This document shows, piece by piece, positions 2,097 through 18,711 of a stretch of 64,000 bases of DNA. The position numbers and the translations under genes are program-made. Under the pieces are notes generated by a model. It made no database searches. It was not told the origin of the DNA and was given only the letters and a program-made list of their open reading frames with translations. Every line of letters starts with the position of its first letter. The first letter of the stretch is position 1. The DNA is from Agromyces sp. ISL-38 (GTDB lineage Bacteria > Actinomycetota > Actinomycetes > Actinomycetales > Microbacteriaceae): assembly GCF_018613935.1 (NCBI RefSeq), contig NZ_JAGGPF010000007.1:1-64000 (forward strand), in the 5' to 3' direction.

Positions 2097-3029
2097 ATGA
2101 GCAGCACGACTCCCGGATCCGAGCCGGGCGGCACGGGCGACGCAGAGCGGCCCGTCGACGACGACACCGTCGCAGACGTCGAGCCCGTATCCGACCCAGG
2201 CGCCCCGACGGCTGCGTCCGTGGACTCGGGCGACGGGCCCGACGCGACGGCTCGCCTCGACGCGGCGGTCGAGCGCGCGAAGGCCGAGGCCGCGGCATCC
2301 GATTCGCCCGACACCGATGCGTACTCCGAGCCCGTTGCCGCCGATGCCGTGCGCCGCGAGGCGTACGTGCCCTCGGCGACCATGGCTCCGGGCGCCGCGG
2401 CCGGCGCTGCGACGCTCGCCGAGGAGCCGGCAGGGCCGACTGTGGCGCCCCAGCCCGTCGCACCGCAGACCATCTACGTGCAGGCGCCGACTCCTCCGAA
2501 GCGTCGTGGCAACCGGGGATTCGGGGCGCTCGTGGCCCTCATCGGCACCGTCGTGTTCGCACTGGTCTACGCAGGCGTGGCCTACCTCCTCGTCACGTGG
2601 TACGGGGCGGCCCGCGGCGACGGCGTCCAGGTCTTCACCGAGTTCCTCGCGCGCCCGGTCTTCTGGGTGCCGGTCGTCGCGTTCTTCATCGGCTTCGCCC
2701 TGCTCGCCGCGATCGTGAACCGCGGGGCCTGGTGGTACTACGCGGTCTTCGGCCTGCTGGTCGGCGTCTTCGTGTACTTCGCCTACCTCGGAGGCTCACT
2801 GCTCACGGTCGAAGCATGGACCCTCACGGCCGACGAGGCGGGCGACTTCATCGCCCAGCGCTGGCTCGACCCGTTCGCGATCGCGGCCTTCATCATCGCC
2901 CGCGAGATCCCGATCTGGCTCGGCGGCTGGACCGCCGCGCACGGCCGCACGGTCACCGAACGCAACCGGCTCGCTCGCGAAGCATACGATCGCGAGTTGG
3001 CAGCGGGACCGCAGGCGCAACGGTACTGA
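2097..3029 (+). CDS. Unrecognised four-helix membrane protein with long disordered N-terminus
   Basis: A 310-residue protein. The first 140 residues or so are rich in Ala, Asp, Glu, Pro and Thr and look disordered. The rest has about four hydrophobic segments, beginning at FGALVALIGTVVFALVY. A strong GGAAGGAG ribosome site precedes the ATG. A perfect hairpin follows the stop (3034-3073). I do not recognise the family; the layout (acidic cytoplasmic tail plus small membrane domain) is common among uncharacterised actinobacterial envelope proteins. A TM-proximal stretch PPKRRGNRG gives a positive-inside cue that the N-terminus is cytoplasmic. Confidence 0.65.
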   Translation: MSSTTPGSEPGGTGDAERPVDDDTVADVEPVSDPGAPTAASVDSGDGPDATARLDAAVERAKAEAAASDSPDTDAYSEPVAADAVRREAYVPSATMAPGAAAGAATLAEEPAGPTVAPQPVAPQTIYVQAPTPPKRRGNRGFGALVALIGTVVFALVYAGVAYLLVTWYGAARGDGVQVFTEFLARPVFWVPVVAFFIGFALLAAIVNRGAWWYYAVFGLLVGVFVYFAYLGGSLLTVEAWTLTADEAGDFIAQRWLDPFAIAAFIIAREIPIWLGGWTAAHGRTVTERNRLAREAYDRELAAGPQAQRY

Positions 3030-3194: not shown

Positions 3195-4424
3195 GTGAGC
3201 GTCACCCTCGACGTCGACGACGAGCCGACGCCCGGTCTCGACGCCGACGGTCGGCCCGACCCCGCGTATGCGGCGGGCCTCGGCATCCTTCCCGCCCCGG
3301 CGGGTCGGCGCGCGGCCGCCTTCGCGGTCGACGCCGCCATCTGGTGTGTGCTGGCGGCACCCGGCGTGATCGGTGCGTCGCTGCTCCTCGGCGCCGTCAT
3401 CCGCGCCGCCGGAGACGTCACCGTCATCGCCGGCGGCGATCTCGTGCTCCCGCTCGTGCTCACCGGGGCGAGCCAGGGGCTGCTCGTCATCTTCGGGCTC
3501 GTGCAGCTCATCCTTCACGGCCGCAAGGCCCTCACCCTCGGCAAGGCCGCCCTCGGCCTGCGGTCGGTGAACGTCGCGCGGTTGCAGGCGCCGGGGTTCT
3601 GGCGCATCGTGTGGCGCGCCATCGTGCTCTGGGGAGCGCAGGTCGTGCTGCCGCTCGTCGGACCGGCCGTGCTCTTCGCCTCGTCGAAGTGGGACCCCGA
3701 GCAGCGAGGGCGCAGCTGGCTCGATCGGGTGGGCCGGAGCTACGTCATCGACATCCGACGCGGCCTGAACCCGTTCGACGCGAAGGCGCTCCGGCACGCG
3801 CGACGAGCCCTCGCGGCACCGCCGGCCGCCGTCGTCTCGAGGCTGCCGTCGCTTGCCACCGATCGTGGACCCGACGAACACACGTTCATCCCAGCCGCAC
3901 GCTCGAGTTCCGGGGTCGTCTCGGCGGGTGCAGGCGCTGAGTGGGTGCCGCCCGCGATCGGCGGGTCACCAGCCCGAAGCGCGGCGCCTGCCGCGCCGGA
4001 ATCGCGTGGCGTCCAGGCGGGTGGAACGCCGGCGGCCCCGGCGCCGACCCGGCCGACTCCTGCCGCCGCGCCGAGCGAACGGGTGTGGCTGCTCGTCTTC
4101 GACGACGGTACCCAGCTCGAGGCGCCGGCCCGCGGTCTCATCGGCCGCGCGCCCGCTCCACCTTCGGCAGGCGCGCACGCGCTGCTCGTGCCGCTCACCG
4201 ACGAGAGCATGCGCATCTCCAAGACCCACGCTGAGTTCGGAGTGGATGCCGCGGGGTTCTGGATCAGTGATCGCGCCTCGCGCAACGGCACCGCCGTCGA
4301 GTTCCCCGACGGTGCCGCCCGCACGCTCGAGGCCGGCAGTCCCACACGTCTTCCCGCGGGCTCGCGAGTGACGCTCGGCGGCCGGTCCTTCACAATTTCG
4401 TTCGAATCGAGAGGTCGTCGATGA
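3195..4424 (+). CDS. RDD-family membrane protein with C-terminal FHA domain (T7SS locus)
   Basis: A 409-residue protein. After a short acidic start, residues about 35-185 form an RDD-type membrane domain: the opening GRRAAAFAVDAAIW corresponds to the R..D..D signature helix, followed by further hydrophobic helices. An Ala/Pro-rich linker leads to a forkhead-associated domain near the C-terminus, with LIGRAP and SKTHAEF followed by DRASRNGT, the usual phosphothreonine-binding loops. The GTG start has AGGAG six bases upstream. It overlaps the ATPase gene by ATGA, so the two are translationally coupled. Role inferred: a membrane partner of the secretion ATPase whose cytoplasmic FHA domain reads Ser/Thr phosphorylation. 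No kinase gene is present in the window. Confidence 0.82.
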   Translation: MSVTLDVDDEPTPGLDADGRPDPAYAAGLGILPAPAGRRAAAFAVDAAIWCVLAAPGVIGASLLLGAVIRAAGDVTVIAGGDLVLPLVLTGASQGLLVIFGLVQLILHGRKALTLGKAALGLRSVNVARLQAPGFWRIVWRAIVLWGAQVVLPLVGPAVLFASSKWDPEQRGRSWLDRVGRSYVIDIRRGLNPFDAKALRHARRALAAPPAAVVSRLPSLATDRGPDEHTFIPAARSSSGVVSAGAGAEWVPPAIGGSPARSAAPAAPESRGVQAGGTPAAPAPTRPTPAAAPSERVWLLVFDDGTQLEAPARGLIGRAPAPPSAGAHALLVPLTDESMRISKTHAEFGVDAAGFWISDRASRNGTAVEFPDGAARTLEAGSPTRLPAGSRVTLGGRSFTISFESRGRR

Positions 4425-7400
4425 AGCTCAAGCTCGGTCTGCGTCGCCAGTCCGGTGCCCCTGTCGACATCGCGGTGACCGCGGATGCCACGGCGACGGT
4501 CGGCGACGTCGCTCGCACGATCGCCGAGAACGACCCGACCAGGTCGGGGCTGCAAGGCGCGCACGGGCGTGCGCTCACCCTCGCCGTGGCTCCGCCGACG
4601 TCGACCGAGCCGGTGGTGCTGCAACCCGATCTCCTCGTCGCCGACGCGCCGATCGGCTCGGGGTTCAACGCGGCCGTCGTGCTCGACACGGGAAGCACGG
4701 GCGCCGCGAAGTCGAACGTGCCGGCCGCCGCGCTGCAGATCCACAACGGGCCTGAGGCCGGTCGCCGGATCGAGTTGCCTCGGGGCCACTTCGTGATCGG
4801 GCGTGGCACCGGATCCGACCTCGTGGTCGTCGATCCGCTCATGTCCAAACGCCACGCGCGAATCGAGATCGGTGCGACGATCGAGGTCGTCGACCTCAAC
4901 TCGGCCAACGGCGTGCTCGTCGACGGCGGGCTCGTGCAGCGGGTCCGGGTCGTGCCCGGCCAGATCATCGTGCTCGGTGACACCGAAGTCTCGATCGCAC
5001 TGATCCCGTCGGAGAACCCGGCCGACGATCCCGTCCTGGAGCGCGGCGGCGCGCTCATGTTCAATCGATCGCCACGGGTCGAGGCTCGATACCCGGGCAC
5101 GGAGTACCCGCATCCGTCGGTGCCGAACGAGGCCAGCCCCCAGATGTTCCCATGGCCGATGGTCGTCTCACCGATCCTCATGGGCGTCGCGATCTTCGCG
5201 ATCACCGGCCGGGCACTGTCGCTGCTCATCGTGGTCATGTCGCCGCTCATGATGCTCGGCAACTTCATCGGGCAGCGCACGCAGCGCGGGAAGAAGCTGC
5301 TTCAGGAGATCGAGACCTTCGAGACCCAGATCGAGCAACTCGAGGACACGCTCGCCGGGCAGGTCGTCGTCGAGCGGGAACGACGCCATGCCGAGGCTCC
5401 CGCCGTCGCACTCGTCTACGAGCAGGCGATGCGGTTGGGTCCGATGCTCTGGACCCGCCGACCCGAGCACTGGAACGTGCTCTCACTCCGACTCGGAGTC
5501 GGCCGGGGCGTCAGCCGCAACAGCATCCAGGAGTCGAGCGGCAACCAGACAGGCATCGCGACCTACCAGAAGCAGGTCGCGAAGCTGCGTTCGCGATTCG
5601 AATACATCGACGACATTCCGATCGTCGAGATCCTGCCGATCTCGGGTGCGATCGGCATCGCGGGCCCGCAGCATCTCTCCGCCGACGTGATGCGCGGCCT
5701 CGCCGTGCAGCTGTTCGGGCTGCATGCCCCGAACGAGATCATCACCGCCGCGATCGTGGACCCCGCGTGGGCGCGTGAGCTCGAGTGGCTGAAGTGGCTC
5801 CCTCACACGTCGAGCTCGCGCAACCCGTTCGCCGACTTCGCCCTCGCCGACAACCAGTCCACCGGAACCGCACTCCTCAACGCGCTCGAGGAGACGATCA
5901 TCGAACGGCTCTCGGGCACGCCGACCCGGCGGGGCGCCTTGAAGATCGCCGACACCTCGATGGCCATCGGCGCCCAGGTCGGCGAGGCGGTCGAGAAGGT
6001 CACGAGCGCCGGCGCCGGCGACGGCGACATGGCGCTCGTGCTCATCGTCTCGGCCGACGCCCCCGTCGATCGGCCGCGGCTCACCCAACTCATCGAGCGC
6101 GGCGCCGACGCGGGCATCTACACGATCTTCCTCGGACCGACCGTCGAGTCGCTTCCCGCAGCATGCCGCACGTTCGTCGACGCGACGAACGGCCTCGACG
6201 CCGCCCGCGTGGGGTTCGTGCGTGCCGGAGAGGTGTACGAGTCCGTGCGCGTCGAGGGCGTCTCGGCGTCGTACGCCGAGGTCTTCGCGAGACGGCTCGC
6301 GCCCGTCGTCGACGCGAGCACGGTCGCCGAGGATTCGAGCGACCTCCCGCGCAACGTCTCGATGCTCGGCCTCATCGGGCACGAGATCGCCGACAGCCCC
6401 GACAGCGTCATCGAGCGCTGGCGGCAGAACAATTCGATCAACGACCGCTCCGGCGTCCAGTTGCCGAGGCTCAAGCGCTCGGGCACGCTGAAGGCGTTCA
6501 TCGGTCAGGCGAGCCCCGACGCGATGTCGCTCGACCTGCGAACGCAAGGCCCTCACGCGCTCGTGGGTGGAACGACCGGCGCCGGCAAGTCGGAGTTCCT
6601 CCAGGCCTGGGTGCTCGGCATGGCGGCCGAGTACAGCCCCGATCGGGTCACGTTCCTCTTCGTCGACTACAAGGGCGGCTCGGCCTTCGCCGACTGCGTC
6701 GAGCTGCCGCACTGCGTGGGACTCGTGACCGACCTGAGTCCCCATCTGGTGCGCCGCGCCCTCACGAGCCTTCGCGCCGAGCTGCACCACCGCGAGCACC
6801 TCTTCAACCGCAAGAAGGCCAAGGACCTCCTCGAACTCGAGAAGCGCAGGGACCCCGAGACACCGCCCGCCCTCGTGCTCGTCATCGACGAGTTCGCGGC
6901 GCTCGCCGGGGAGGTGCCCGAGTTCGTCGACGGCGTCGTCGACATCGCACAGCGTGGACGCTCGCTCGGCATCCATCTCATCATGGCGACGCAGCGTCCG
7001 GCCGGCGTCATCAAGGACAACCTGCGGGCGAACACGAACCTCAGGGTCGCCCTCCGCATGGCCGATGAGTCCGACTCGCGCGACGTGGTCGGCGACTCGG
7101 TCGCCGGAACGTTCGATCCGTCGATACCGGGGCGCGGCATCGCGAAGACCGGGCCGGGTCGCCTGGTTCCGTTCCAGTCCGCGTATGCGGGCGGATGGAC
7201 CACCGAAGAGGTCGCGAAGGCAGAGGTCCGCGTCGCCGAGCTCCGATTCGGAGCGACCCTTCTCTGGGAGGGGGATGCCGCACCCGAGTCCGACTCGCAC
7301 GACGAGGATCTCGGTCCGAACGACCAGAAGCGGATGGTGCGCTCGTTCATCTCGGCCGCGGCGACGGCCGGCGTGCCGGCGCCGAGGCGGCCATGGCTCG

Positions 7401-8938
7401 ACGACCTGCCGGGCACCGTCGACATCGTCGACCTGCCGGTCGAGGGCGATTCGAAGATCATGCTCGGGCTCGCCGACGTTCCCGCCCGCCAACTGCAGGA
7501 GGCGATGTCGTTCGTACCCGACCGCGACGGCGCGATGCTCGTCTACGGCACGAGCGGGTCTGGCAAGTCGACCGTGCTGCGCACCATTGCGATCGCCGCG
7601 GGAATGCGCCCCGAACTCGGCGACGCCGAGGTGTACGGCCTCGACTTCGGCTCAGGCGCCCTGCGCTCCCTCGAGGCGCTGCCGCACGTCGGCTCGGTCA
7701 TCTCCGGTGACGATCCTGAACGCGTGCAGCGTGTGCTCCGCACGCTGAACGAGATCCTCGACCGACGAGGCAAGGCGTTCAGCGAGGCGAACGCGGCGAG
7801 CCTGACGGAGTACCGGAGGCTCACCGGCATCCGGGAGCCTCGCGTCCTGCTCCTGCTCGACGGCTTCGGACAGTTCAAGGCCGAGTGGGACACCACGACC
7901 GTTCGGATGCCGTTCTACAACGTCTTCATGCGCATCCTCGGTGAAGGGCGTCCACTCGGCGTGCACGCCGTCGCGACGGCGGATCGCGCCGGGGCGGTGC
8001 CAACCGCGGTGAGTGCGAACATCACGAAGCGCATCGTGCTCCGACTCTCGGATGACTCGGCGTACCAGGTGCTCGGAGTGCCCAAGGACGTGCTGAGCGA
8101 ACGCTCGGCGCCGGGGCGCGCGATCGTCGAGGGACTCGAGACGCAGATCGCGGTGCTCGGGGGCACCGCGAACGTCGCCGAGCAGACGAAGGCCCTCGAG
8201 CATCTCGCCGAGCAGCTGCGCGCGGCAGGGGCTCACGAGGCCCCCGCCATCGGTTCCCTGCCGACCTCCTACACGGAGCACGGCCTCCCGGCCGAGCTCG
8301 GCGGCGAGCCCGTGCTCGGCCTCGCCGACGACACGCTCGGGCCCTCGGCGTTCGAGCCGGTCGGCACCTTCATCGTCACGGGTCCACCGCAGAGTGGGAA
8401 GACGACGGCGATGCGCTCGATCGTCAACTCGATGCGGCGATTCGATCCCGGCGTGCGGCTCTTCCACTTCGCGGGCCGGCGTGCGCAGCTCACCGATTAC
8501 GCGCCGTGGATGCGCAGCGCCACCACGATCGACGCGGCGAAGGCACTCGCGAAGGAGCTCATCGAGGTCATCACCGACGAGAGCGTTCCGGGTCGGCTCA
8601 TGGTCGTCGTCGAGGGCGTGCCGCAGTTCGGCGACACCGAGGCCGAGCGGCCGATGAAGGAGATGTTCCAGGCGATCAACCGCAGCGACCACTTCCTCAT
8701 CGGCGACGCCGATGTCTCGCTGCTGTCGAGTGGATTCGGATTCATCGGCGACTTCAAGGCCGGACGCCAGGGCATCGCGCTCAAGCCCGACGCATTCGAC
8801 GGCGACTCGGTGTTCAAGACGCCGTTCCCGAAGGTGAAGCGGGCCGACTCGCCCGAGGGACGCGCGATCTTCGTGCAGAACGGCCGACTCGTCACCGTCC
8901 AGCTCCCGCTCGTCGGCGCCGGCGACGGCGCGCGCTGA
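4421..8938 (+). CDS. Type VII secretion FtsK/SpoIIIE ATPase (EccC/EssC type) with N-terminal FHA domain
   Basis: A 1505-residue membrane ATPase that powers export of WXG100-type proteins. In order: a beta-rich stretch (1-90) that could be ubiquitin-like (YukD/EccD type); an FHA domain (about 105-195, with VIGRGTGSD, SKRHARIE, NSANGV); two hydrophobic helices (about 246-285); and three P-loop ATPase domains. Walker A motifs sit at 716-724 (GGTTGAGKS), 1043-1050 (GTSGSGKS) and 1321-1328 (GPPQSGKT). Only the first has a canonical Walker B (LVLVIDEF). The second has LLLLDGF and the third LMVVVEG, so hydrolysis in the later domains is doubtful, as known for EccC. Single-chain organisation resembles Firmicutes EssC more than split mycobacterial EccCa/EccCb. 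Confidence 0.93.
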   Translation: MKLKLGLRRQSGAPVDIAVTADATATVGDVARTIAENDPTRSGLQGAHGRALTLAVAPPTSTEPVVLQPDLLVADAPIGSGFNAAVVLDTGSTGAAKSNVPAAALQIHNGPEAGRRIELPRGHFVIGRGTGSDLVVVDPLMSKRHARIEIGATIEVVDLNSANGVLVDGGLVQRVRVVPGQIIVLGDTEVSIALIPSENPADDPVLERGGALMFNRSPRVEARYPGTEYPHPSVPNEASPQMFPWPMVVSPILMGVAIFAITGRALSLLIVVMSPLMMLGNFIGQRTQRGKKLLQEIETFETQIEQLEDTLAGQVVVERERRHAEAPAVALVYEQAMRLGPMLWTRRPEHWNVLSLRLGVGRGVSRNSIQESSGNQTGIATYQKQVAKLRSRFEYIDDIPIVEILPISGAIGIAGPQHLSADVMRGLAVQLFGLHAPNEIITAAIVDPAWARELEWLKWLPHTSSSRNPFADFALADNQSTGTALLNALEETIIERLSGTPTRRGALKIADTSMAIGAQVGEAVEKVTSAGAGDGDMALVLIVSADAPVDRPRLTQLIERGADAGIYTIFLGPTVESLPAACRTFVDATNGLDAARVGFVRAGEVYESVRVEGVSASYAEVFARRLAPVVDASTVAEDSSDLPRNVSMLGLIGHEIADSPDSVIERWRQNNSINDRSGVQLPRLKRSGTLKAFIGQASPDAMSLDLRTQGPHALVGGTTGAGKSEFLQAWVLGMAAEYSPDRVTFLFVDYKGGSAFADCVELPHCVGLVTDLSPHLVRRALTSLRAELHHREHLFNRKKAKDLLELEKRRDPETPPALVLVIDEFAALAGEVPEFVDGVVDIAQRGRSLGIHLIMATQRPAGVIKDNLRANTNLRVALRMADESDSRDVVGDSVAGTFDPSIPGRGIAKTGPGRLVPFQSAYAGGWTTEEVAKAEVRVAELRFGATLLWEGDAAPESDSHDEDLGPNDQKRMVRSFISAAATAGVPAPRRPWLDDLPGTVDIVDLPVEGDSKIMLGLADVPARQLQEAMSFVPDRDGAMLVYGTSGSGKSTVLRTIAIAAGMRPELGDAEVYGLDFGSGALRSLEALPHVGSVISGDDPERVQRVLRTLNEILDRRGKAFSEANAASLTEYRRLTGIREPRVLLLLDGFGQFKAEWDTTTVRMPFYNVFMRILGEGRPLGVHAVATADRAGAVPTAVSANITKRIVLRLSDDSAYQVLGVPKDVLSERSAPGRAIVEGLETQIAVLGGTANVAEQTKALEHLAEQLRAAGAHEAPAIGSLPTSYTEHGLPAELGGEPVLGLADDTLGPSAFEPVGTFIVTGPPQSGKTTAMRSIVNSMRRFDPGVRLFHFAGRRAQLTDYAPWMRSATTIDAAKALAKELIEVITDESVPGRLMVVVEGVPQFGDTEAERPMKEMFQAINRSDHFLIGDADVSLLSSGFGFIGDFKAGRQGIALKPDAFDGDSVFKTPFPKVKRADSPEGRAIFVQNGRLVTVQLPLVGAGDGAR

Positions 8939-9025: not shown

Positions 9026-9350
9026 AGTCGGGTCGGTATTCGATCGAGGGAAGGTTTCATCATGGCGGATTTCGGTGCTTCTTACGGCGAGATGGAGGCG
9101 ATGTCGTCGAAGCTCGGTGACGCGCGCGATGACATTCAGGGTCAGCTCGACCAGCTGAAGAGCGCGGTGGACAACCTGCTGGGCAATGACTTCAAGACGC
9201 AGCACGCGTCGGGCAAGTTCGGTCAGGGGTATGAGGAGCTGACGACGGGGCTGAAGTCCGCGGTCGACGGCATCGGTGAGATGGGCGAGGCGCTGCGTGG
9301 CATGATGCAGGCGATCCAGGACCTCGACCAGCAGCTCGCCGGCGGCTGAG
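9026..9350 (+). repeat. 325-bp perfect direct repeat, copy A
   Basis: Bases 9026-9350 are identical by eye to 14934-15258. The repeat covers 36 bases of leader and the whole WXG100-like gene plus one base. Identity stops abruptly at both ends. Confidence 0.95.
9062..9349 (+). CDS. WXG100-family (ESAT-6-like) protein, copy A
   Basis: A 95-residue, cysteine-free, largely helical protein with a helix-turn-helix pattern: helix 1 about 8-40, turn LLGNDF (about 44-49), helix 2 about 60-92. Size and position next to the FtsK ATPase identify it as the small exported T7SS substrate. It departs from the family in two ways. The WxG turn is replaced by LLGN, and there is no clear YxxxD/E export motif near the C-terminus (IQDLDQQL). 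Ribosome site GGGAAGG lies 8 bases upstream. The gene is duplicated without any change at 14970. Dimer formation with itself or with the 108-residue neighbour is expected from the family but not shown. Confidence 0.87.
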   Translation: MADFGASYGEMEAMSSKLGDARDDIQGQLDQLKSAVDNLLGNDFKTQHASGKFGQGYEELTTGLKSAVDGIGEMGEALRGMMQAIQDLDQQLAGG

Positions 9351-9443
9351 TCCGAGTCGGCGCACGGGCGCCGGCCGCACACCCACAGACCCCGAGCAGC
9401 ACAACCACGGACCACCTGACAGAAGGAGCGAGGAGTCGGCGCC

Positions 9444-9770
9444 ATGACGGACGTCAAGATCAGCTATTCCGTGCTGAACGAACTGAACGGCTCGTTGAAG
9501 CAGATCATCGTCGAGCTCGAAGAGGCCTCGAATCGTGCGTCGGCACTCGAGGACGCGATCGGCGACCCTTGCGGCCGCAACGATCTGCGTGAGGCGGCGG
9601 AGGAATTCGAAGACGGCTGGGACGACCGGCGCAAGTTCCTGAAGGAAGACATCGCCAATGTCCAGAAGCACGTCGAGGAGATCGGCAAGGCATGGACCGA
9701 GTGGGACACCGAGGCAGCAGCGAGCCTCGCGGTCGAGGCCAACGAGGCCGAAACGCTGCCTCGAGGATAG
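9444..9770 (+). CDS. Small helical WXG100-like protein of the T7SS locus
   Basis: A 108-residue acidic protein predicted to be two long helices around a short turn at GDPCGRND (about 41-48). Trp residues occur in FEDGWDD and AWTEWDTE. Size, charge and position between a WXG100-like gene and a large T7SS partner suggest a second WXG100-superfamily member, perhaps the heterodimer partner. The canonical WxG motif is not present. AGAAGGAG lies upstream of the ATG. It is followed after 12 bases by the 402-residue gene, so the two are likely co-transcribed. Unlike the neighbouring WXG100-like gene it has no duplicate in the window. Confidence 0.7.
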   Translation: MTDVKISYSVLNELNGSLKQIIVELEEASNRASALEDAIGDPCGRNDLREAAEEFEDGWDDRRKFLKEDIANVQKHVEEIGKAWTEWDTEAAASLAVEANEAETLPRG

Positions 9771-9782
9771 GAAAGGCAAGAC

Positions 9783-10991
9783 ATGTCTGCGGGTGAATCC
9801 CCGAAGGGACGCAGGATCGAGTGGATCGAGGGCAATCCCTCCGACATCGAGACGCGCGGCAATCAGATCGTCGATCTGGGCGACCAGATGATCGGCTCGG
9901 CCGGGGTGCTGAAGGCGGTCGCCGACGGTGCGACCGGCATGGAGGGACTCTCGGTCGAGAAGCTCAAAGACGTGATCGGCGATGTGCATGAGGAGCTCAA
10001 GCTCGCCGGTGAACGCTACTCGCCGACCGGTCACGCGCTCACGAAGTACGCGTCCTCGCTCGAGGAGGTGCAGACCGGACTTCGCAGCATCGTCGACGAT
10101 GCCGAGCACTACTGGCAGCAGTACGGGAACCTTCCCGGATACATCGACGGGCAGCGCCCGGCCATCGGAATGCCCTCACCCGGAAGCCCTGAGTCCACCG
10201 AGCTGGCAGAAGACGACCAGGCGAAGCAGGCCGCCTACGACAAGTGGGAAGAGAAGGCGGAGGCGTTCGACGCCAAGTACGACACCTGGGAGTCGGCGTT
10301 CGAAGACGCCACGAACTCGATCGGCGAGGCGACCGACGGTGGCATCAGCGACAGCTGGAAGGACAACATCGCCGGGTTCGCGGACGTCGCGCTCGACGTC
10401 CTCGCCGTGGCCGGCATCATTCTGGCCGTGCTCGCCATCATCATCGGCGGACCGCTCATCGCCGTTCTCGGCGCGATCGTCGCTCTCGCGACCCTGGCGC
10501 TGACGCTGTACATGAAGGCCTACGGGCGGGCGGACTGGGGCGATGTCGCATGGGCTGTCATCGGCGTCCTGCCGATCGGCAAGCTGGGCAAGTTCGCCGA
10601 GGGCGGGAGCGAAGGAATGAAGGCCTTCATGAAGGGATTCGTCGCGGCCGACGAGTTCGGCGATCTCGCGGGCGTATTCCGAACCGGCTTCAACTCCGGC
10701 GGCCTCACCGCGCTGTCGCGTTTCGGCAATGGCGCCACCGAGGTCTGGAACTTCCAGCGGGCAACTCCTCTCGGCTGGGGTGAGACCCTCGGCCGGTACA
10801 TGGGCTTCGGTTCCGCCGAGGAGCTCGCCGAGGCCGGCGCGCGATCCAATGGCTGGGCCGACATCCTCTCCGGCCACTGGGACGTGAACCTCAAGGGCAC
10901 CGTGGCGAACTCGGTCCAGTTGTACGATCTGCTGTCGGGCGATGAGCCCCCAGTAGACTCGTGGCGCGAACAGCTCGCCCAGAACAGTTGA
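9783..10991 (+). CDS. Large T7SS-associated membrane protein, module 1
   Basis: A 402-residue protein. The first 190 residues are helical and highly conserved in the second module. They open with PKGRRIEWIEG and continue through LGDQMIGSAGVLKAVADGA, a layout like the N-terminal export domains of large T7SS substrates (inference). Residues about 200-245 are hydrophobic, enough for two membrane spans. The C-terminal 150 residues hold small helices and end in VDSWREQLAQNS. No known toxin fold, nuclease or ADP-ribosylation motif is visible, and the C-terminus is conserved between paralogues, unlike polymorphic toxins. It forms a module with the two genes that follow. It could be a secreted pore-like protein or a membrane component of the secretion machine. 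Confidence 0.7.
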   Translation: MSAGESPKGRRIEWIEGNPSDIETRGNQIVDLGDQMIGSAGVLKAVADGATGMEGLSVEKLKDVIGDVHEELKLAGERYSPTGHALTKYASSLEEVQTGLRSIVDDAEHYWQQYGNLPGYIDGQRPAIGMPSPGSPESTELAEDDQAKQAAYDKWEEKAEAFDAKYDTWESAFEDATNSIGEATDGGISDSWKDNIAGFADVALDVLAVAGIILAVLAIIIGGPLIAVLGAIVALATLALTLYMKAYGRADWGDVAWAVIGVLPIGKLGKFAEGGSEGMKAFMKGFVAADEFGDLAGVFRTGFNSGGLTALSRFGNGATEVWNFQRATPLGWGETLGRYMGFGSAEELAEAGARSNGWADILSGHWDVNLKGTVANSVQLYDLLSGDEPPVDSWREQLAQNS

Positions 10992-11034
10992 TCGCCGCGG
11001 CAGAGCGCACCCGTAACCACGTAGAGACGAGCCG

Positions 11035-11643
11035 ATGTCACTGAGAGATGAGTTGATCGGTGCTCCGCGCACGATCCCGCCGTACCAGATCGTGCTGCCG
11101 TCGGGGTGGCGGGAGTATTCTGCGGATGACGCGACCGAGCAGGCGCTCCTCGAGCAGGCGAAGGCCCGGCTGCGTTCGCAGCATCGGCCCGACCTGGCCG
11201 CGCAGCTCACTCACGCCTCGCGTGATGCCTTCGCCAGGATGCGCCAGAGCAGCACGATCGCGTTCTATCTCCAGGCGGATGCACCCGACGAGCAGGTCAT
11301 GCCGATCTCGATCACCGCGTCGCGATTGGTCGCGCCCGACGGCGGCACGCTCGACGCGCAGGTCTCCGACCTCGTTCGCAATCACGGTGCCGAGGCGTTC
11401 AACGACGACATGGTGCTCGTGCGCTGGAAGGTCTCATCGACCAGGCAGCTCGGCGCCGAGCGCGTCGGCACGCTCTCCATCTCGTACCTCGCACCCATCC
11501 CCGGCACGATGCGGCGCGAAGGGCTGCAGTTCGTCGCCGTCATCCTCCACCCTGTCGGGCTCGAGGCGGACGACCCGGCCCTGGTGAAGCTCACCTTCGT
11601 GTGCGACGCCATCATGTCGACCTTCGCTTGGATGCCCGCATGA
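11035..11643 (+). CDS. T7SS-locus partner protein A, module 1
   Basis: A 202-residue soluble protein beginning MSLRDEL, of mixed alpha/beta character. It is clearly homologous to the protein at 13661: both share a PSGW or PAGW segment, the RPDL.AQL helix, RM.S..TIAFY, QVMPISI or QIMPISI, and a C-terminal KL.FVCDAIM. No catalytic motif is evident. It lies between the large membrane protein and another small gene whose start codon overlaps its stop (ATGA at 11640), implying coupled translation and a shared complex. A chaperone role, by analogy of position with EspG in mycobacterial ESX loci, is possible but there is no sequence similarity that I can see. Confidence 0.65.
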   Translation: MSLRDELIGAPRTIPPYQIVLPSGWREYSADDATEQALLEQAKARLRSQHRPDLAAQLTHASRDAFARMRQSSTIAFYLQADAPDEQVMPISITASRLVAPDGGTLDAQVSDLVRNHGAEAFNDDMVLVRWKVSSTRQLGAERVGTLSISYLAPIPGTMRREGLQFVAVILHPVGLEADDPALVKLTFVCDAIMSTFAWMPA

Positions 11644-12269
11644 TCATCGAGATGCAGTTGCCCCCTGGGGCGTGGAGCGGCTTGCCGCGGCAATTCCCGA
11701 CGGGCTCCGGCCAATCGGCCGACGAGTGGTTCGAGGAGCTCGCCCAGGCGTACTCGGCGGAGCATGGCGGCAGTCTCACGTCCGAGCAGGTCGGCGGGCT
11801 TCGCGACCTGGTGGGGGAGGCTCGGGCGCAGATCTCCGATCGCGACGTCGCGACGCTGCTCTTCCGGCCGGTCGGCGCGCCGGTGACCGCCGTGGTCCAC
11901 GTGCAGCTCGCTGCCGCCGAACCAGACACCCGAGACGCGATCGCGCACGCGCTGCTGCCCGACGTGCCGATGGCGCTGCCGCCGAAGATCGGGCCCATAG
12001 AGCACGCGACCTTCGGCACCGGCCACAAGGGCACCTTCCTCTCCGGTGAGCTCCACGACGATCGTGCGGTCGGGGGCACGAGTTACGCGTTCGCCGCCGA
12101 CGGCATCGTGGTGCACGTCTTCACGGGCCCGCTGCCTCCGTTCGTGCTCGGGCTCATCGAGGCCCCCTCGACGAGGTCGTGGCGTCGATGCGACTTCTCG
12201 ACGACGGCACTGCGTAGCGGATGCCGATGGGCAGCAATGCCCATTGGTCGTCTGCCTGAGGCTCGATAG
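11640..12269 (+). CDS. T7SS-locus partner protein B, module 1 (C-terminus probably frameshifted)
   Basis: Reads as 209 residues. Homologous to the product at 14263: both have FP(T)..G.S..EWFE, a helix ending in LR.L(V/I), ATLLFRP or ATILFRP, and MAL.P. The match breaks after GLIEAP. The paralogue continues LDDIVRTIRF, and here the +1 frame encodes LDEVVASMRL directly after a run of five C (12163-12167) and would stop at 12217. One missing C therefore explains the divergent tail, either as a real frameshift or a sequence error. The read-through tail covers the next operator. Start overlaps the upstream stop by ATGA. Function unknown. Confidence 0.62.
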   Translation: MIIEMQLPPGAWSGLPRQFPTGSGQSADEWFEELAQAYSAEHGGSLTSEQVGGLRDLVGEARAQISDRDVATLLFRPVGAPVTAVVHVQLAAAEPDTRDAIAHALLPDVPMALPPKIGPIEHATFGTGHKGTFLSGELHDDRAVGGTSYAFAADGIVVHVFTGPLPPFVLGLIEAPSTRSWRRCDFSTTALRSGCRWAAMPIGRLPEAR

Positions 12270-12272
12270 CGT
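12226..12272 (+). promoter_or_regulatory. T7SS-locus operator/promoter 3
   Basis: Perfect palindrome ATGGGCA-GCAA-TGCCCAT (12227-12244), followed by T at 12245. TAGCGT (12267-12272) starts 22 bases after that T, the same spacing as in the other sites. The -35 position (12244-12249, TTGGTC) overlaps the right arm. It drives the module-2 membrane protein at 12360. Confidence 0.72.
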
Positions 12273-12359
12273 CACAGTGTGGTCGCACTCCGCGGCCGCA
12301 GACCGTGGCCGCACGCAAGGGATCACGGCGGCATCGCACCGAGCCTGGGGAGCACTGAG

Positions 12360-13616
12360 ATGGTCGATTCCCCGAAGGGGCGCAACATCGAGTGGATCGA
12401 GGGCGACCCCGGGGCCATTGCCGAACGCGGAGTGCAGATCGTGCAGCTCGGCGACCAGATGATCGGTTCGGCAGGGGTGCTCAAGGCCGTGGCCGACGGC
12501 GCATCCGGCATGGAAGGGCTCTCGGTCGACAAGCTTCGCGAGGTCGTCGGCGACGTGCACGAGCAGCTCAAGCTCGCCGGCGAGCGGTACACGCCCACCG
12601 GCTGGGCCCTGAGACGGTACGCCGACGTGCTCGACGACGTGCAGCTCGGCCTGCGAGCGCTCGTCGAGGACTGCGAGGCGCACTGGGGCGAGTACAGCCG
12701 GCAGGCGACGATCGTCGGCGATCTCGAGTGGCGGCGCGGGGGCAGCATGCCCGGCGACGCAGGCGCAGGCGAAGCGGACGGGATCGAAGAGGAACTCGGC
12801 ACGGCGACGACGGATCGTGATCGTGCCTACTCCGCGTGGCAGGAGGATGCCGAGGCGTACGACGAACGCTTCGACACCTGGGAAGCTGCCTTCGACCGTG
12901 CGACGAACGAGATCGGCGACGCCACCGACGGCGGGATCAGCGACTCCTGGCGCGACGATGTCGCCGGATTCGCCTCGACCGCGCTCAAGGTGCTGCAGAT
13001 CGCGGGCATGGTGCTCGCGGTGCTCGCCATCATCGTCGGCGGTCCGATCATCGCGTTCCTCGCCACCGTGGTCGGCATCCTCACCCTCATCGCGACGCTC
13101 TACATGAAGTACTACGGTCGGGCGAGCTGGGGCGATGTCGCCGTCGCGGTCATCGGCGTCATCCCGTTCAGCAAGCTCCCGGCGGTCTTCGCGGGCGCAC
13201 CGGGCGCCGGCGGCTCCTTCTTCAAGGCGATGGTGGGCGCCGACGACGCGATCAAGGGCTGGGGACAGTTGTCGTCCGGCTGGCAGGTATTCAGGTCCGG
13301 ATTCAGCACTGCTGGGCTGACCGGCTTCTCCCGGTTCGCGGGCGGCGCGAGCGAGGTCTGGCCGTCGGTGGCCCGACAGATCGGCGACCCCGCGGACTGG
13401 GTCATCCGGAGCGTCGGTGCAGGCGACCACCTCGCGAGCACGCTCGACAACCTTGCGGACCCCGTCAAGTACTGGGACGTCGTCGACGGGCTCATGGCCA
13501 AGCCCTTGTCCGACACGGTGTCGTCGCTTGCAGGAGCCATCTGGGCGCCCTCGGAGCCGGCACCCGACCTCCCCGTAGACTCGTGGCGTGACCAGCTCGC
13601 TGCGAGCACGGCGTGA
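12360..13616 (+). CDS. Large T7SS-associated membrane protein, module 2
   Basis: A 418-residue paralogue of the protein at 9783. The N-terminal 120 residues are nearly collinear (PKGRNIEWIEG, LGDQMIGSAGVLKAVADGA, GDVHEQLKLAGERY.PTG). The middle carries the shared ATDGGISDSW.D sequence. Residues about 202-247 are hydrophobic and the tail ends VDSWRDQLAASTA. The linker around residues 125-160 is different and longer. Start ATG follows GGGGAG; a dedicated operator and -10 lie 90-135 bases upstream, so this module can be transcribed alone. No toxin domain is visible. Two full-length paralogues in one locus suggest a functional pair (heteromer or alternative subunits) rather than one enzyme. Confidence 0.7.
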   Translation: MVDSPKGRNIEWIEGDPGAIAERGVQIVQLGDQMIGSAGVLKAVADGASGMEGLSVDKLREVVGDVHEQLKLAGERYTPTGWALRRYADVLDDVQLGLRALVEDCEAHWGEYSRQATIVGDLEWRRGGSMPGDAGAGEADGIEEELGTATTDRDRAYSAWQEDAEAYDERFDTWEAAFDRATNEIGDATDGGISDSWRDDVAGFASTALKVLQIAGMVLAVLAIIVGGPIIAFLATVVGILTLIATLYMKYYGRASWGDVAVAVIGVIPFSKLPAVFAGAPGAGGSFFKAMVGADDAIKGWGQLSSGWQVFRSGFSTAGLTGFSRFAGGASEVWPSVARQIGDPADWVIRSVGAGDHLASTLDNLADPVKYWDVVDGLMAKPLSDTVSSLAGAIWAPSEPAPDLPVDSWRDQLAASTA

Positions 13617-13660
13617 GCGGCGTGTCGCCGAGTCCCGACGAGAGACGAGATCCGCCCACG

Positions 13661-14266
13661 ATGTCCCTTCGCGACGAGCTCGACCGTTCGCCTGATCTCC
13701 CGCCCGCATGGCGCATCATGCTCCCCGCGGGCTGGGTCGAGCGCGCTCCTGACGCCGAGACCGAGCACGAGCTCACGGCGGCGACGGCCGCGAGGATGCG
13801 AGCCGCCCACCGGCCCGACCTCAACGCGCAGCTTCGGCGGCTCACGCGCGAGGCGTTCGACCGCATGCGCAGCCAGGACACGATCGCGTTCTATCACCAG
13901 GTCGCTGCCGTCGAGGGGCAGATCATGCCGATCTCGATCATCGCCTCGAGGCTTGCGTCTCCGATGGGCGGCCCGCTCGATGATCAGGTCGCGGATCTCA
14001 TCCGCAACCACGGCGCAGAGCCGTTCGACGACGCACGCACCATGATCCGCTGGAGCACCTCATCGACGATGGAATCGGGCGGCGAGCGCATCGGGCTCCG
14101 CGCGATCGGCTATCTCACGCCGGTGCCGCGCACGCATCGGCGAGCGGCGCTCCAGTTCACCGCGGCCATCACCCACCCGGTGGGGCTGGCCGACGACGAC
14201 CCGTCGCTCATCAAGCTCGAGTTCGTGTGTGACGCGATCATGGGCACGTTCGGATGGGCTCAATGA
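13661..14266 (+). CDS. T7SS-locus partner protein A, module 2
   Basis: A 201-residue paralogue of the protein at 11035, beginning MSLRDEL and keeping the RPDL.AQL, TIAFY, QIMPISI and EFVCDAIMGTF segments. An in-frame upstream ATG at 13613 would add 16 residues, but the start at 13661 matches the paralogue exactly. The stop overlaps the next start (ATGA at 14263). It follows its large partner after 44 bases, the same order as module 1. No catalytic residues can be named. Soluble, so it probably works in the cytoplasm with the large protein or the ATPase. Confidence 0.65.
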   Translation: MSLRDELDRSPDLPPAWRIMLPAGWVERAPDAETEHELTAATAARMRAAHRPDLNAQLRRLTREAFDRMRSQDTIAFYHQVAAVEGQIMPISIIASRLASPMGGPLDDQVADLIRNHGAEPFDDARTMIRWSTSSTMESGGERIGLRAIGYLTPVPRTHRRAALQFTAAITHPVGLADDDPSLIKLEFVCDAIMGTFGWAQ

Positions 14267-14907
14267 ACCTCGAGCTGAGCTATCCGGCTGCGAGCTGCTC
14301 GATACTGCCGCGAACCTTCCCGACGCCCGACGGAGCGAGTGAGGCCGAGTGGTTCGAGGCGATCGGGAGCCAGTACGCCGAGTCACAGGGCGAGCTCGAC
14401 GACATCCGACGCGAGTCGCTCCGACGCATCCTCGAGCGAAAGCGCCGCGACGTGCTCCCAGCAGACGAAGCGACGATCCTGTTCCGGCCCACGATCCTCC
14501 CGGTCTTCGTCACGATCCATGTGCAGGCGTTCGAGCGGACCGGCGCCGAGGTGGAGGCGCTCGTCGAGCGGGTGGGCATGCCCGAGACCACGATGGCGCT
14601 TCGGCCCCGCGTGGATCGATTCCCGAGCGAACTGCTCGGCGAGGGCCGCAAGGCCGCGTTCGTCGCGGCGGTCGCCGCCGACGACACGATGGCCGGATTC
14701 AGCTATCTCTTCGCCGATGCGCGCCGCGTGGTCAGTGTCTTCACCGCGCCCGCGACTCCGACGGCCCTCGGCATCCTCGAGCCGATCCTCGACGACATCG
14801 TGCGCACGATCCGGTTCGCTCCAGCGGATGCACCTGCACCCTCGACGACGCACCCCGAGACCGAATGGGGAGTGCTGCCCATTGGCCCTCCGGGGGGCCC
14901 CGCGTAG
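14263..14907 (+). CDS. T7SS-locus partner protein B, module 2
   Basis: A 214-residue paralogue of the protein at 11640 with an intact C-terminus: ATILFRPTILPVFVTIHVQ, then MALRPRVDRF and LGILEPILDDIVRTIRF. The start is set by the ATGA overlap with the upstream stop. Its last 14 codons run through the fourth T7SS operator (read as EWGVLPIG), so protein tail and promoter share DNA. No enzyme motif or membrane segment is seen. This copy is the reference against which the frameshift in module 1 is recognised. Confidence 0.65.
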   Translation: MNLELSYPAASCSILPRTFPTPDGASEAEWFEAIGSQYAESQGELDDIRRESLRRILERKRRDVLPADEATILFRPTILPVFVTIHVQAFERTGAEVEALVERVGMPETTMALRPRVDRFPSELLGEGRKAAFVAAVAADDTMAGFSYLFADARRVVSVFTAPATPTALGILEPILDDIVRTIRFAPADAPAPSTTHPETEWGVLPIGPPGGPA

Positions 14908-14910
14908 TGT
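14864..14910 (+). promoter_or_regulatory. T7SS-locus operator/promoter 4
   Basis: Palindrome at 14864-14883 is identical to that at 8964-8983. TAGTGT (14905-14910) begins 22 bases after its last T. The -35 position is TTGGCC (14882-14887). It lies inside the 3' end of the preceding gene and precedes WXG100-like copy B. The bases between operator and repeat differ from copy A, so the 20-mer is conserved independently of the 325-bp repeat. Confidence 0.7.
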
Positions 14911-14933
14911 GAATCGAGCAAACGGTCCGATCG

Positions 14934-15258
14934 AGTCGGGTCGGTATTCGATCGAGGGAAGGTTTCATCATGGCGGATTTCGGTGCTTCTTACGGCGAGA
15001 TGGAGGCGATGTCGTCGAAGCTCGGTGACGCGCGCGATGACATTCAGGGTCAGCTCGACCAGCTGAAGAGCGCGGTGGACAACCTGCTGGGCAATGACTT
15101 CAAGACGCAGCACGCGTCGGGCAAGTTCGGTCAGGGGTATGAGGAGCTGACGACGGGGCTGAAGTCCGCGGTCGACGGCATCGGTGAGATGGGCGAGGCG
15201 CTGCGTGGCATGATGCAGGCGATCCAGGACCTCGACCAGCAGCTCGCCGGCGGCTGAG
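14934..15258 (+). repeat. 325-bp perfect direct repeat, copy B
   Basis: Identical by eye to 9026-9350, same orientation, offset 5908 bases. Recombination between copies would remove the segment from the end of copy A to the end of copy B and leave one intact WXG100-like gene. Confidence 0.95.
14970..15257 (+). CDS. WXG100-family (ESAT-6-like) protein, copy B
   Basis: A 95-residue protein identical at every residue and base to the product at 9062, with the same leader and GGGAAGG ribosome site. Helix-turn-helix with the turn at LLGNDF in place of WxG and no clear C-terminal YxxxD/E. It closes the T7SS locus and is followed by a strong hairpin (15273-15300), so it forms a single-gene unit under its own operator. 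Two identical genes under separate promoters may raise dosage of the substrate, with identity held by gene conversion; that is inference. Confidence 0.87.
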   Translation: MADFGASYGEMEAMSSKLGDARDDIQGQLDQLKSAVDNLLGNDFKTQHASGKFGQGYEELTTGLKSAVDGIGEMGEALRGMMQAIQDLDQQLAGG

Positions 15259-17823: not shown

Positions 17824-18198
17824 GTGCCAACCATTCAGCAGTTGGTCCGCAAGGGTCGCTCGCCGAAGGTCACCAAGACCAAGGCTCCCGCCCTGAAGGC
17901 CAACCCCCAGCAGCGCGGCGTGTGCACGCGTGTGTACACCACCACCCCGAAGAAGCCGAACTCGGCGCTCCGCAAGGTCGCCCGTGTGAAGCTCTCGAAC
18001 GGCACCGAGGTCACCGCCTACATCCCCGGCGAGGGCCACAACCTCCAGGAGCACTCGATGGTGCTCGTGCGCGGCGGTCGAGTGAAAGACCTCCCCGGTG
18101 TGCGCTACAAGATCATCCGCGGCGCGCTCGACACGCAGGCCGTGAAGAACCGCAAGCAGGCCCGTAGCCGTTACGGCGCGAAGATGGAGAAGAAGTAA
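17824..18198 (+). CDS. rpsL: 30S ribosomal protein S12
   Basis: A 124-residue decoding-centre protein of the small subunit. It has the [11 protein letters not shown] loop and the [13 protein letters not shown] loop. Lys43 and Lys88, the positions changed in streptomycin resistance, are both lysine, so the allele looks sensitive. GTG start after AAGGAG. The stop shares one base with the rpsG start (TAATG). Confidence 0.98.
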
Positions 18199-18668
18199 TG
18201 CCTCGCAAGGGACCCGCTCCGAAGCGCCCCGTCGTCGCCGACCCCGTCTACAGCTCGCCGGTCGTCAGCCAGCTCGTCAACAAGATCCTCATCGACGGCA
18301 AGAAGGACCTCGCGCAGCGCATCGTCTACGAGGCGCTCTCCAACGTCGCCGAGAAGAACGGCCAGGACGCCGTCGCCACCCTCAAGAAGGCGCTCGACAA
18401 CGTGCGCCCCACCCTCGAGGTGCGGTCGCGCCGCGTCGGCGGCTCGACCTACCAGGTCCCCGTCGAGGTCAAGCCTCACCGCGCCAACACCCTGGCCCTC
18501 CGCTGGCTCACCAGCTACGCCAAGGCTCGTCGCGAGAAGACCATGACCGAGCGCCTCACCAACGAGATCCTCGATGCTTCCAACGGCCTCGGCGCCGCAG
18601 TGAAGCGTCGCGAAGACACGCACAAGATGGCCGAGTCGAACCGCGCCTTCGCCCACTACCGCTGGTAA
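18198..18668 (+). CDS. rpsG: 30S ribosomal protein S7
   Basis: A 156-residue primary 16S rRNA-binding protein that nucleates the 30S head. Full length, with PRKGPAPKR start and typical [13 protein letters not shown] and [15 protein letters not shown] segments. One-base overlap with rpsL. A perfect 15-bp hairpin follows in the gap before fusA. Confidence 0.98.
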
Positions 18669-18673
18669 TGGCA

Positions 18674-18711
18674 GAGCGGATGCCGCGGCCCGCAGCCCGC
18701 GGCATCCGCTC
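18674..18711 (+). terminator. Hairpin between rpsG and fusA
   Basis: Arms 18674-18688 and 18697-18711 are exact 15-base complements, loop 8 bases, no T-run. As fusA follows with no obvious promoter, it may be a partial terminator or processing site. Confidence 0.55.

What the first reader, a model, noticed from the sequence alone, without database searches (positions are those of the whole stretch)
3195..8938. FHA domains on both the RDD membrane protein and the ATPase
Two translationally coupled genes each carry a phosphothreonine-binding FHA domain, one C-terminal and one N-terminal. The ATPase begins with a possible ubiquitin-like stretch, so YukD/EccD-like, FHA and ATPase functions may be fused. 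EccB, EccD, EccE and mycosin are not in the window. This suggests a stripped-down system gated by Ser/Thr kinase signalling.
Basis: partly seen in the sequence, partly recalled or inferred. Interest (0 to 1): 0.58.

Follow-up and report, generated by a model that had tools for sequence, protein, structure and literature searches.

The report
Ubiquitin-like domain fused to secretion motor
A soil-type actinobacterium carries a protein-secretion motor whose front end combines a ubiquitin-like domain with a phosphate-reading domain; [quoted passage not shown]

Summary
An RDD membrane protein with a C-terminal FHA domain (3195-4424) overlaps by ATGA a 1505-residue EssC/EccC-type ATPase (4421-8938). 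Its residues 1-90 are predicted as a ubiquitin-like beta-grasp (AlphaFold2 pLDDT 90-92; EccD ubiquitin-like domains among the best structural matches), followed by an FHA domain with phosphothreonine-binding residues conserved, two hydrophobic segments and three FtsK-type ATPase domains. WXG100 and effector-like genes follow.

"Stripped-down" is wrong. Searches found no EccB, EccD, EssB or separate YukD in the genome, but contig C2 has a PP2C phosphatase, FHA protein, catalytic-looking transmembrane Ser/Thr kinase, Ig-repeat giant, MoxR, DUF58 and transglutaminase. In 31 of 67 related loci with enough flank, kinase, phosphatase and envelope genes sit beside the same ATPase. The kinases' cytoplasmic linkers carry a threonine-specific [DE]xT(V/I/L/M)xR motif, plausible FHA docking sites.

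Best reading: an unnamed actinobacterial T7SS variant, resembling T7SSd/e of Garrett 2024 but with the ubiquitin-like part fused to the ATPase; its kinase/envelope gene set resembles the bifidobacterial PFNA operon, not linked to T7SS in the passages I read. Kinase gating is inferred, not shown.

The parts
3195..4424 (+). RDD membrane protein with C-terminal FHA domain (409 aa, GTG start)
   Evidence: Pfam RDD and FHA above cut-offs; FHA keeps GR, SxxH and NG residues (sequence); an RDD+FHA reading frame on the ATPase's strand in 45 of 80 related loci
4421..8938 (+). Ubl-FHA-TM-FtsK x3 ATPase (1505 aa)
   Evidence: NCBIfam EssC 522 bits (cut-off 778), EccCa 331 (509), EccCb 309 (347), i.e. homologous but below each of these cut-offs; Walker A at residues 717, 1043 and 1321
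4421..4690 (+). Ubiquitin-like (beta-grasp) domain, residues 1-90
   Evidence: AlphaFold2 pLDDT 89.8-92; VIA-align Z 8.3 to the EccD1 ubiquitin-like domain 4kv2, 78 aligned, rmsd 2.4
4724..5002 (+). FHA domain, residues ~102-194, phosphothreonine-binding residues kept
   Evidence: G127 53/53, R128 52/53, S142 52/53, H145 53/53, N163 52/53, G164 53/53; closest folds GarA, FhaA (TB39.8) and OdhI
5147..5236 (+). Two hydrophobic segments (residues 243-272), putative transmembrane hairpin
   Evidence: Kyte-Doolittle scan
9062..9349 (+). WXG100 protein (EsxA/TsxA-like), copy 1
   Evidence: PF06013 40.8 bits, cut-off 27.3; NCBIfam WXG100_ESAT6 31.3 bits, below its cut-off 44.85
9444..9770 (+). Small partner protein (108 aa) between WXG100 and effector
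   Evidence: family c4, found in 16 of 41 neighbourhoods; no Pfam family above cut-off
9783..10991 (+). Effector-like protein 1 (402 aa, one hydrophobic segment)
   Evidence: family c3, in 16 of 41 neighbourhoods; member L043:11557-12903 matches PF21725 T7SS_signal at 31.6 bits, cut-off 27; the window's own protein has no such hit
11035..11643 (+). Accessory protein of the effector cassette (202 aa; chaperone or immunity, undecided)
   Evidence: family c10 in 6 of 41 neighbourhoods, alignment A6
11601..12269 (+). Second accessory protein of the cassette (222 aa)
   Evidence: position in the cassette, matching that of 14254-14907 in cassette 2
12357..13616 (+). Effector-like protein 2, paralogue of 9783-10991 (start uncertain; frame open from 12279)
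   Evidence: about 69% nucleotide identity to cassette 1; same family c3
13658..14266 (+). Accessory protein, 56% identical to 11035-11643
14254..14907 (+). Second accessory protein of cassette 2
   Evidence: position
14970..15257 (+). WXG100 protein copy 2
   Evidence: same PF06013 score as copy 1; 93.7% nucleotide identity over about 398 bases

Best explanation
The locus encodes the motor and cargo of a type VII secretion system of an unnamed actinobacterial variant. Shown by sequence and model: the ATPase is an EssC/EccC-type three-domain motor whose N-terminus carries a ubiquitin-like domain of the kind other T7SS supply as EsaB/YukD or as part of EccD, then one FHA domain with the phosphothreonine residues kept; the overlapping RDD-FHA gene carries a second one; a PP2C-FHA-kinase-c13-Ig giant-MoxR-DUF58-transglutaminase module is encoded elsewhere in the genome, and related modules lie next to the ATPase in many relatives. 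Inferred: (1) the transmembrane kinase phosphorylates threonines of the repeated [DE]xT(V/I/L/M)xR motif in its cytoplasmic linker; (2) these dock the FHA domains of the ATPase and of RDD-FHA, assembling or activating the motor at the membrane, where T7SSb uses the EssB pseudokinase against the FHA domains of EssC; (3) PP2C resets it; (4) the fused ubiquitin-like domain packs on the cytoplasmic motor as EccD's does; (5) the Ig giant and transglutaminase serve passage or anchoring in the wall; (6) WXG100 and the two effector-like proteins are the cargo.
For: Fold of residues 1-90; FHA residues near-invariant in 53 ATPases and FHA fold nearest to GarA, FhaA and OdhI. Kinase module in the own genome. 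Among 67 of 80 related loci with at least 7 kb upstream held, 30 have kinase, PP2C, c13 and at least one of MoxR/DUF58/transglutaminase, 31 have these without counting c13; 32 have the kinase, 49 at least one envelope gene, 17 none of them. Co-occurrence in 120 genomes of the family: c13 in 31 of 35 with the close ATPase against 11 of 85 without. HxDxxxxN and DFG in 35 of 35 kinases. [DE]xT(V/I/M/L)xR after the kinase domain: 31 observed, 1.1 expected, maximum 6 in 500 shuffles, in 26 of 35 kinases; all 31 lie between kinase domain and the strongest hydrophobic segment (31 observed, 0.7 expected, maximum 4), none after it, and the serine form is absent from that linker (S(V/I/M/L)xR 0 observed, 3.7 expected). 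Not enriched in the kinase domains (T(V/I/M/L)xR 2 observed, 8.8 expected). The own C2 kinase has four [DE]xTxxR sites, two of them of the strict motif.
Against: No binding, phosphorylation or secretion was tested. In the window's genome the kinase module is on another contig and could serve another machine; a second kinase module with its own EccC-like ATPase without visible FHA sits on C19. 17 of 67 loci show no kinase, PP2C, c13 or envelope gene in the flank held, including the Agromyces locus L086 and several Microbacterium loci close to the window. The motif count treats related kinases as independent, and the pattern was refined after looking at sequences (a first pattern gave 26 against 3.4; TVVR alone 2 against 0.5). 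That FHA domains would read TxxR is recalled, not tested. A known substrate of the bifidobacterial kinase Pkb2 is the MoxR ATPase (PMC6803598 passage), so the kinase may have other targets. Profile comparison with three EccD/EsaB domains is weak (probability 12%, E 0.0024), PF08817 YukD hits only 5 of 53 members (best E 0.0043), no Foldseek match reached E 0.001 for the 95-residue model, and other beta-grasp proteins (a toluene-monooxygenase subunit, talin) score as high as EccD.
Confidence: 0.62

Rival explanations
1. The ATPase is a T7SS motor, but its FHA domain is a phospho-independent protein-protein module as presumed for T7SSb EssC; the kinase module belongs to cell-envelope signalling and is a neighbour by operon history only.
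For: The T7SSb FHA-pseudokinase contact is presumed not to depend on phosphorylation (PMC11217815; YukC-YukB contact in PMC9600267 passages). In the window's genome the kinase is on another contig, and 17 of 67 relatives show no module gene nearby.
Against: Phosphothreonine-binding residues are near-invariant, whereas PMC11217815 reports them lacking in T7SSb EssC; the kinases look catalytic; adjacency, co-occurrence and the linker motif.
Confidence: 0.2
2. It is a member of T7SSd (Garrett 2024), already described, with a minor domain gain.
For: Actinomycetota, WXG100, FHA-bearing ATPase with conserved phosphothreonine motif, kinase, Ig-rich giant and few parts (PMC11217815).
Against: T7SSd is reported without any ubiquitin-like protein. 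A more EssC-like ATPase from another actinobacterial genome (L193), possibly T7SSd-like, groups with EssC and away from the window in a 40-row tree (long-branch warning). It also misses the Ubl profile, but so do several of L062-L070, which look ubiquitin-like by eye, so that point is weak. No RDD protein occurs in the paper's main text. Not tested: real TsdC sequences.
Confidence: 0.12
3. The ATPase is not a protein exporter but a DNA- or envelope-related FtsK-like pump that happens to neighbour WXG100 genes.
For: FtsK/HerA family membership; no secretion data exist; only 23 of 67 related loci matched the window's WXG100 protein in the flank.
Against: EssC/EccC models outscore FtsK by a wide margin (522, 331 and 309 against 54.7 bits); WXG100 and effector-like genes directly downstream.
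Confidence: 0.06

Closest known systems
T7SSd and T7SSe (Garrett, Higginson and Palmer 2024, PMC11217815; abstract, sections 5, 7, 8, 9, 16 and passages seen)
   Same: WXG100 protein, FHA-bearing EssC-type ATPase with conserved phosphothreonine motif, transmembrane Ser/Thr kinase, Ig-rich giant; PP2C and separate FHA protein as in T7SSe
   Different: Ubiquitin-like part fused to the ATPase N-terminus (none in T7SSd, separate TseB in T7SSe); RDD-FHA partner; MoxR, DUF58 and transglutaminase beside the ATPase in relatives; no DUF6382 hit in the FHA proteins scanned
T7SSb (EssC/YukB with EsaB, EssA, EssB, EsaA)
   Same: N-terminal globular domains ahead of two hydrophobic segments and three ATPase domains; an FHA in the second position
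   Different: First domain beta-grasp instead of FHA; EssB not found in the genome; catalytic-looking kinase instead of pseudokinase
T7SSa/ESX (EccB-C-D-E, MycP)
   Same: Motor family; EccD carries a similar beta-grasp (4kv2, 6umm, 7b9f); a genus relative, G123, has EccB and EccD near MoxR-DUF58-transglutaminase-FHA-PP2C genes
   Different: No EccB or EccD found in the genome; FHA on the ATPase
PFNA operon of Bifidobacterium (PMC8430577 and PMC6803598, passages seen)
   Same: Gene list: pkb2 kinase, fn3 protein, MoxR AAA-ATPase, DUF58, transglutaminase, prpC phosphatase, FHA gene, as at the C2 locus
   Different: Described as host-signal sensing; 'type VII' and 'FtsK' occur in neither text. 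No bifidobacterial sequence was compared, and linkage of a T7SS ATPase to it was not tested. PMC12067865 (passages) notes that the mycobacterial moxR operon resembles it too, so such cassettes may not be T7SS-specific

Membership tests
T7SS (any type) | EccC/EssC-type FtsK/SpoIIIE ATPase with membrane segment | tested here: met
   three P-loop domains, two hydrophobic segments
T7SS (any type) | WXG100 protein encoded with it | tested here: met
   two copies, PF06013 40.8 bits each
T7SS (any type) | Secretion of the WXG100 protein | not testable with these tools
   needs an experiment
T7SSa/ESX | EccB and EccD | tested here: not met
   0 matches in G000; genome 92.9% complete
T7SSa/ESX | EccE and mycosin | tested here: inconclusive
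   EccE one borderline match, not followed to the end; mycosin-like subtilase 272 bits against a cut-off of 278.75, not adjacent
T7SSb | EssC by NCBIfam TIGR03928 | tested here: not met
   522 bits against a cut-off of 778
T7SSb | EssB/YukC pseudokinase and separate EsaB/YukD | tested here: not met
   0 matches in G000 for PF10140 and PF08817
T7SSb | EssA and EsaA | not tested
   no search run
T7SSd | FHA-bearing ATPase with conserved phosphothreonine motif | tested here: met
T7SSd | No ubiquitin-like protein associated | tested here: not met
   beta-grasp fused to the ATPase
T7SSd | Transmembrane Ser/Thr kinase (TsdD) | tested here: met
   C2 locus, Pkinase 119.4 bits, hydrophobic segment after the kinase domain; not adjacent in this genome; homology to TsdD itself not compared
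T7SSd | TsdI: Ig-rich giant with signal peptide and C-terminal TM helix | tested here: inconclusive
   Big_9 in eight stretches; hydrophobic N-terminus, no TM helix in the last residues printed; no predictor run, TsdI not compared
T7SSd | TsdH | not tested
   no sequence at hand
PFNA cluster | kinase, fn3-type giant, MoxR, DUF58, transglutaminase in this order | tested here: met
   gene content and order at L082-L083 of the own genome, with c13 between kinase and giant; fn3 itself only 21.4 bits against a cut-off of 25; no bifidobacterial sequence compared

The most novel reading that the evidence does not exclude
A distinct, widespread actinobacterial T7SS class exists in which the ubiquitin-like subunit has been fused to the motor in place of EssC's first FHA domain, and in which a real kinase with a threonine-motif linker, a PP2C phosphatase and several FHA proteins switch the motor by phosphorylation. 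The PFNA operon of bifidobacteria and similar MoxR-DUF58-transglutaminase cassettes would be the regulatory and envelope half of such secretion systems, not free-standing host-sensing operons.
Probability: 0.5. Interest if true: 0.75.

Novelty: new variant of a known kind. Interest (0 to 1): 0.62.

Why it matters
EsaB/YukD is essential for T7SSb, but PMC11217815 calls its precise role unclear; a natural fusion to the motor says where it may act and makes that testable in one polypeptide. FHA domains with the phosphothreonine residues kept, a catalytic-looking kinase and a threonine-specific linker motif turn the question of phospho-gated T7SS into a simple binding assay. It also offers a secretion context for the kinase-FHA-PP2C-MoxR-DUF58-transglutaminase genes seen beside this ATPase in many Actinomycetota, and perhaps for the bifidobacterial PFNA operon. 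Iyer et al. [quoted passage not shown] if the domain here is YukD-related, this family is an exception.

Tried and rejected
ESX elsewhere in the genome: rejected on EccB and EccD. Direct link of the Ubl to YukD by sequence alone: weak, so structure was used. C19 locus as the partner: it has its own ATPase without visible FHA, and its kinase has one [DE]xTxxR site against four in the C2 kinase. Of two other kinases on C11, one has one such site and the other none; the further kinase match on C22 and a third on C11 were not looked at. C18 WXG100/EspC-like gene: not near a T7SS ATPase, not followed. EccE match L223: I read the wrong frame and left it. Role of the 200-aa cassette proteins: one small protein of a relative's cassette is near LpqN (20.0 bits, cut-off 22.4), so chaperone against immunity is undecided. 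The supplements of PMC11217815 were not available, so a listing of such proteins there cannot be excluded. Neighbourhood gene calls come from a home-made GC-frame caller that misses or misframes some genes (for example the C2 kinase, found by frame reading; several genes of L042 were called on the opposite strand to the ATPase, and L056 showed no ATPase). The tree was built by a quick method on 40 chosen rows, not on all.
Full report
Observation. The window is contig C23:1-64000 of a 3.72 Mb, 24-contig, 92.9% complete genome. The nearest named relatives of the ATPase are Agromyces (74% and 73% identity in the best segment), so the organism is probably Agromyces or close to it (inference). RDD-FHA runs from GTG 3195 to 4424 and the ATPase from 4421 to 8938, sharing ATGA. 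Pfam supports RDD, both FHA domains and three FtsK stretches.

Residues 1-90. Pfam finds nothing on the window's own sequence. A profile of 24 N-termini finds redesigned ubiquitin in the PDB, E 9e-4. AlphaFold2 on the window plus 52 related sequences gives pLDDT 92.0 for residues 1-205 and 89.8 for 1-95, with main elements strand-strand-helix-strand-strand. Foldseek's 50 best rows are mostly ubiquitin and ubiquitin-like proteins, EccD of ESX-5 and ESX-3 among them, but none has E below 0.001. VIA-align gives Z 9.0 to a toluene-monooxygenase subunit (84 aligned, rmsd 2.6), 8.3 to the EccD1 ubiquitin-like domain (78, 2.4), 8.3 to talin (88, 3.0) and 8.2 to ESX-3 EccD (83, 2.9); rows within 1 of each other are tied, so this gives the fold, not the family. 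Among 53 members Pfam gives YukD in 5 (best E 0.0043), TmoB in 3, OTU1_UBXL in 3, UBX in 2 and ubiquitin in 1, but also unrelated weak names such as Flagellin_IN in 3. A profile comparison with three EccD/EsaB domains is weak. I conclude ubiquitin-like fold; common descent with YukD/EccD is likely but not proven.

FHA. Residues that contact phosphothreonine in known FHA domains (labels recalled) are kept: G127 53/53, R128 52/53, S142 52/53, H145 53/53, N163 52/53, G164 53/53. The nearest folds are GarA, FhaA and OdhI.

Distribution. In 120 genomes of the family, 111 have some match at E 1e-30, which includes many short FtsK-like matches; by my reading of the table 35 have a match of 1000 bits or more. 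In a phylum draw, 25 of 197 genomes match at E 1e-70. Ubl-like N-termini are also readable by eye in most of the about 33% identical ATPases L062-L070, where the profile is weak or silent. A quick 40-row tree puts the window's family apart from an EccC (L207) and from a pair of EssC (L208) and L193, with long-branch warnings.

The missing parts. A kinase query from a relative (L035) finds six matches in the own genome, two of them close: C2:190803 (54%) and C19:50016 (49%). Around C2 lie PP2C, FHA, kinase, a 241-aa protein with an FHA-like start by eye (c13; no Pfam hit), an Ig-repeat giant, MoxR, DUF58 and transglutaminase. Around C19 lie kinase, PP2C, FHA, giant, MoxR, DUF58, transglutaminase and an ATPase of about 1000 aa without visible FHA. 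In 67 of 80 related loci with at least 7 kb upstream: kinase 32, PP2C 33, c13 33, at least one envelope gene 49; kinase, PP2C and envelope 31, with c13 also 30; none in 17. RDD and FHA lie in one same-strand frame in 45 of 80, short contigs counted. Across 120 family genomes c13 is present in 31 of 35 with the close ATPase and in 11 of 85 without; Fisher p is about 3e-15, but the genomes are related and thresholds were set after seeing the table. With a wider ATPase set (59 genomes) it is 39 of 59 against 3 of 61.

Motif. In 35 kinases (34 from related loci, and C2) the motif HxDxxxxN and DFG are present. After the kinase domain, [DE]xT(V/I/L/M)xR occurs 31 times against 1.1 expected (500 shuffles, maximum 6), in 26 of 35. 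Split at the strongest hydrophobic segment (34 of 35 kinases have one of 1.8 or more), all 31 fall in the cytoplasmic linker (0.7 expected, maximum 4) and none after it; 25 distinct six-residue forms occur; S(V/I/L/M)xR occurs 0 times there against 3.7 expected. The kinase domains are not enriched in T(V/I/L/M)xR (2 against 8.8). An earlier pattern gave 26 against 3.4, while TVVR alone gave 2 against 0.5. That these are FHA docking sites is inference.

Cargo. Two WXG100 genes with the same Pfam score start 5.9 kb apart, 93.7% identical in DNA, around two effector-like genes (family c3) and paired 200-aa accessory genes. A c3 relative matches the Pfam T7SS secretion signal. The window's own c3 proteins have no Pfam or NCBIfam hit that reaches a cut-off.

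Literature. Garrett 2024 (PMC11217815; abstract, sections 5, 7, 8, 9, 16 and passages) defines T7SSc-j. T7SSd is actinobacterial, has kinase and Ig giant, and is said to lack a ubiquitin-like protein; 'RDD' and 'Microbacter' do not occur in its main text. [quoted passage not shown] PMC9600267 (passages) reports that the YukC pseudokinase domain copurifies with the FHA region of YukB. Two PFNA papers (PMC8430577 and PMC6803598, passages) do not contain 'type VII' or 'FtsK'; the former describes the cluster in 71 of 86 bifidobacterial species, the latter reports that Pkb2 phosphorylates the MoxR-type ATPase. PMC12067865 (passages) likens the mycobacterial moxR operon to PFNA. PMC3482391 (passages) treats T7SS toxins without this architecture in what I saw. 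Searches in which I saw no description of this fusion: (mostly listings); the library lacks most subscription papers and all bioRxiv preprints.

Verdict. A real secretion-type locus that appears to be an undescribed T7SS variant with a fused ubiquitin-like domain, common in Actinomycetota. Motor identity and fusion are well supported (about 0.9, my estimate); kinase gating is a good but untested inference (about 0.6).

Noticed in passing
L202 (G123:C1:1843001-1862900): A genus relative has EccB and EccD (EccD with a YukD domain), WXG100 genes and, on the other strand, MoxR-DUF58-transglutaminase-FHA-PP2C genes, so a similar module accompanies a T7SSa-like locus.
   Followed up: partly
L193:14902-15153: A separate 83-aa protein that looks ubiquitin-like by eye, about 5 kb downstream of an EssC-like ATPase in an unnamed actinobacterial genome (possibly T7SSd-like), where T7SSd is reported to lack one.
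   Followed up: no
G000:C24:65942-66895 (L218): Mycosin-like subtilase at 272 bits (cut-off 278.75) beside an enolase-like gene; each of the 13 genomes of the genus in the draw (own included) has a best match of about 257-272 bits. Possible unlinked T7SS protease.
   Followed up: partly
G000:C19:35600-53600 (L080, L215): Second EccC-like ATPase of about 1000 aa without visible FHA, with its own transglutaminase, DUF58, MoxR, 1958-aa giant, kinase, PP2C and FHA genes; no EccB or WXG100 match on that contig.
   Followed up: partly
window 9062-15257: Tandem effector cassettes (about 69% DNA identity) flanked by two WXG100 copies that are far more alike (93.7%), which suggests gene conversion or selection on WXG100.
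   Followed up: partly
window 17824-22190 and L035, L040, L042: The locus lies just upstream of the rpsL-rpsG-fusA-tuf genes (names recalled from sequence); some relatives keep this place, suggesting a fixed chromosomal, vertically inherited system.
   Followed up: no
G000:C18:88071-88343 (L084): Third WXG100/EspC-like gene (61.3 bits for WXG100), next to what look by eye like a sensor kinase and ABC-transporter genes, far from any T7SS ATPase seen.
   Followed up: no
window 2097-3029: Membrane protein of a family (c9) found in 9 of 41 neighbourhoods, without a Pfam family above cut-off; it may be a further component or only a conserved neighbour.
   Followed up: no
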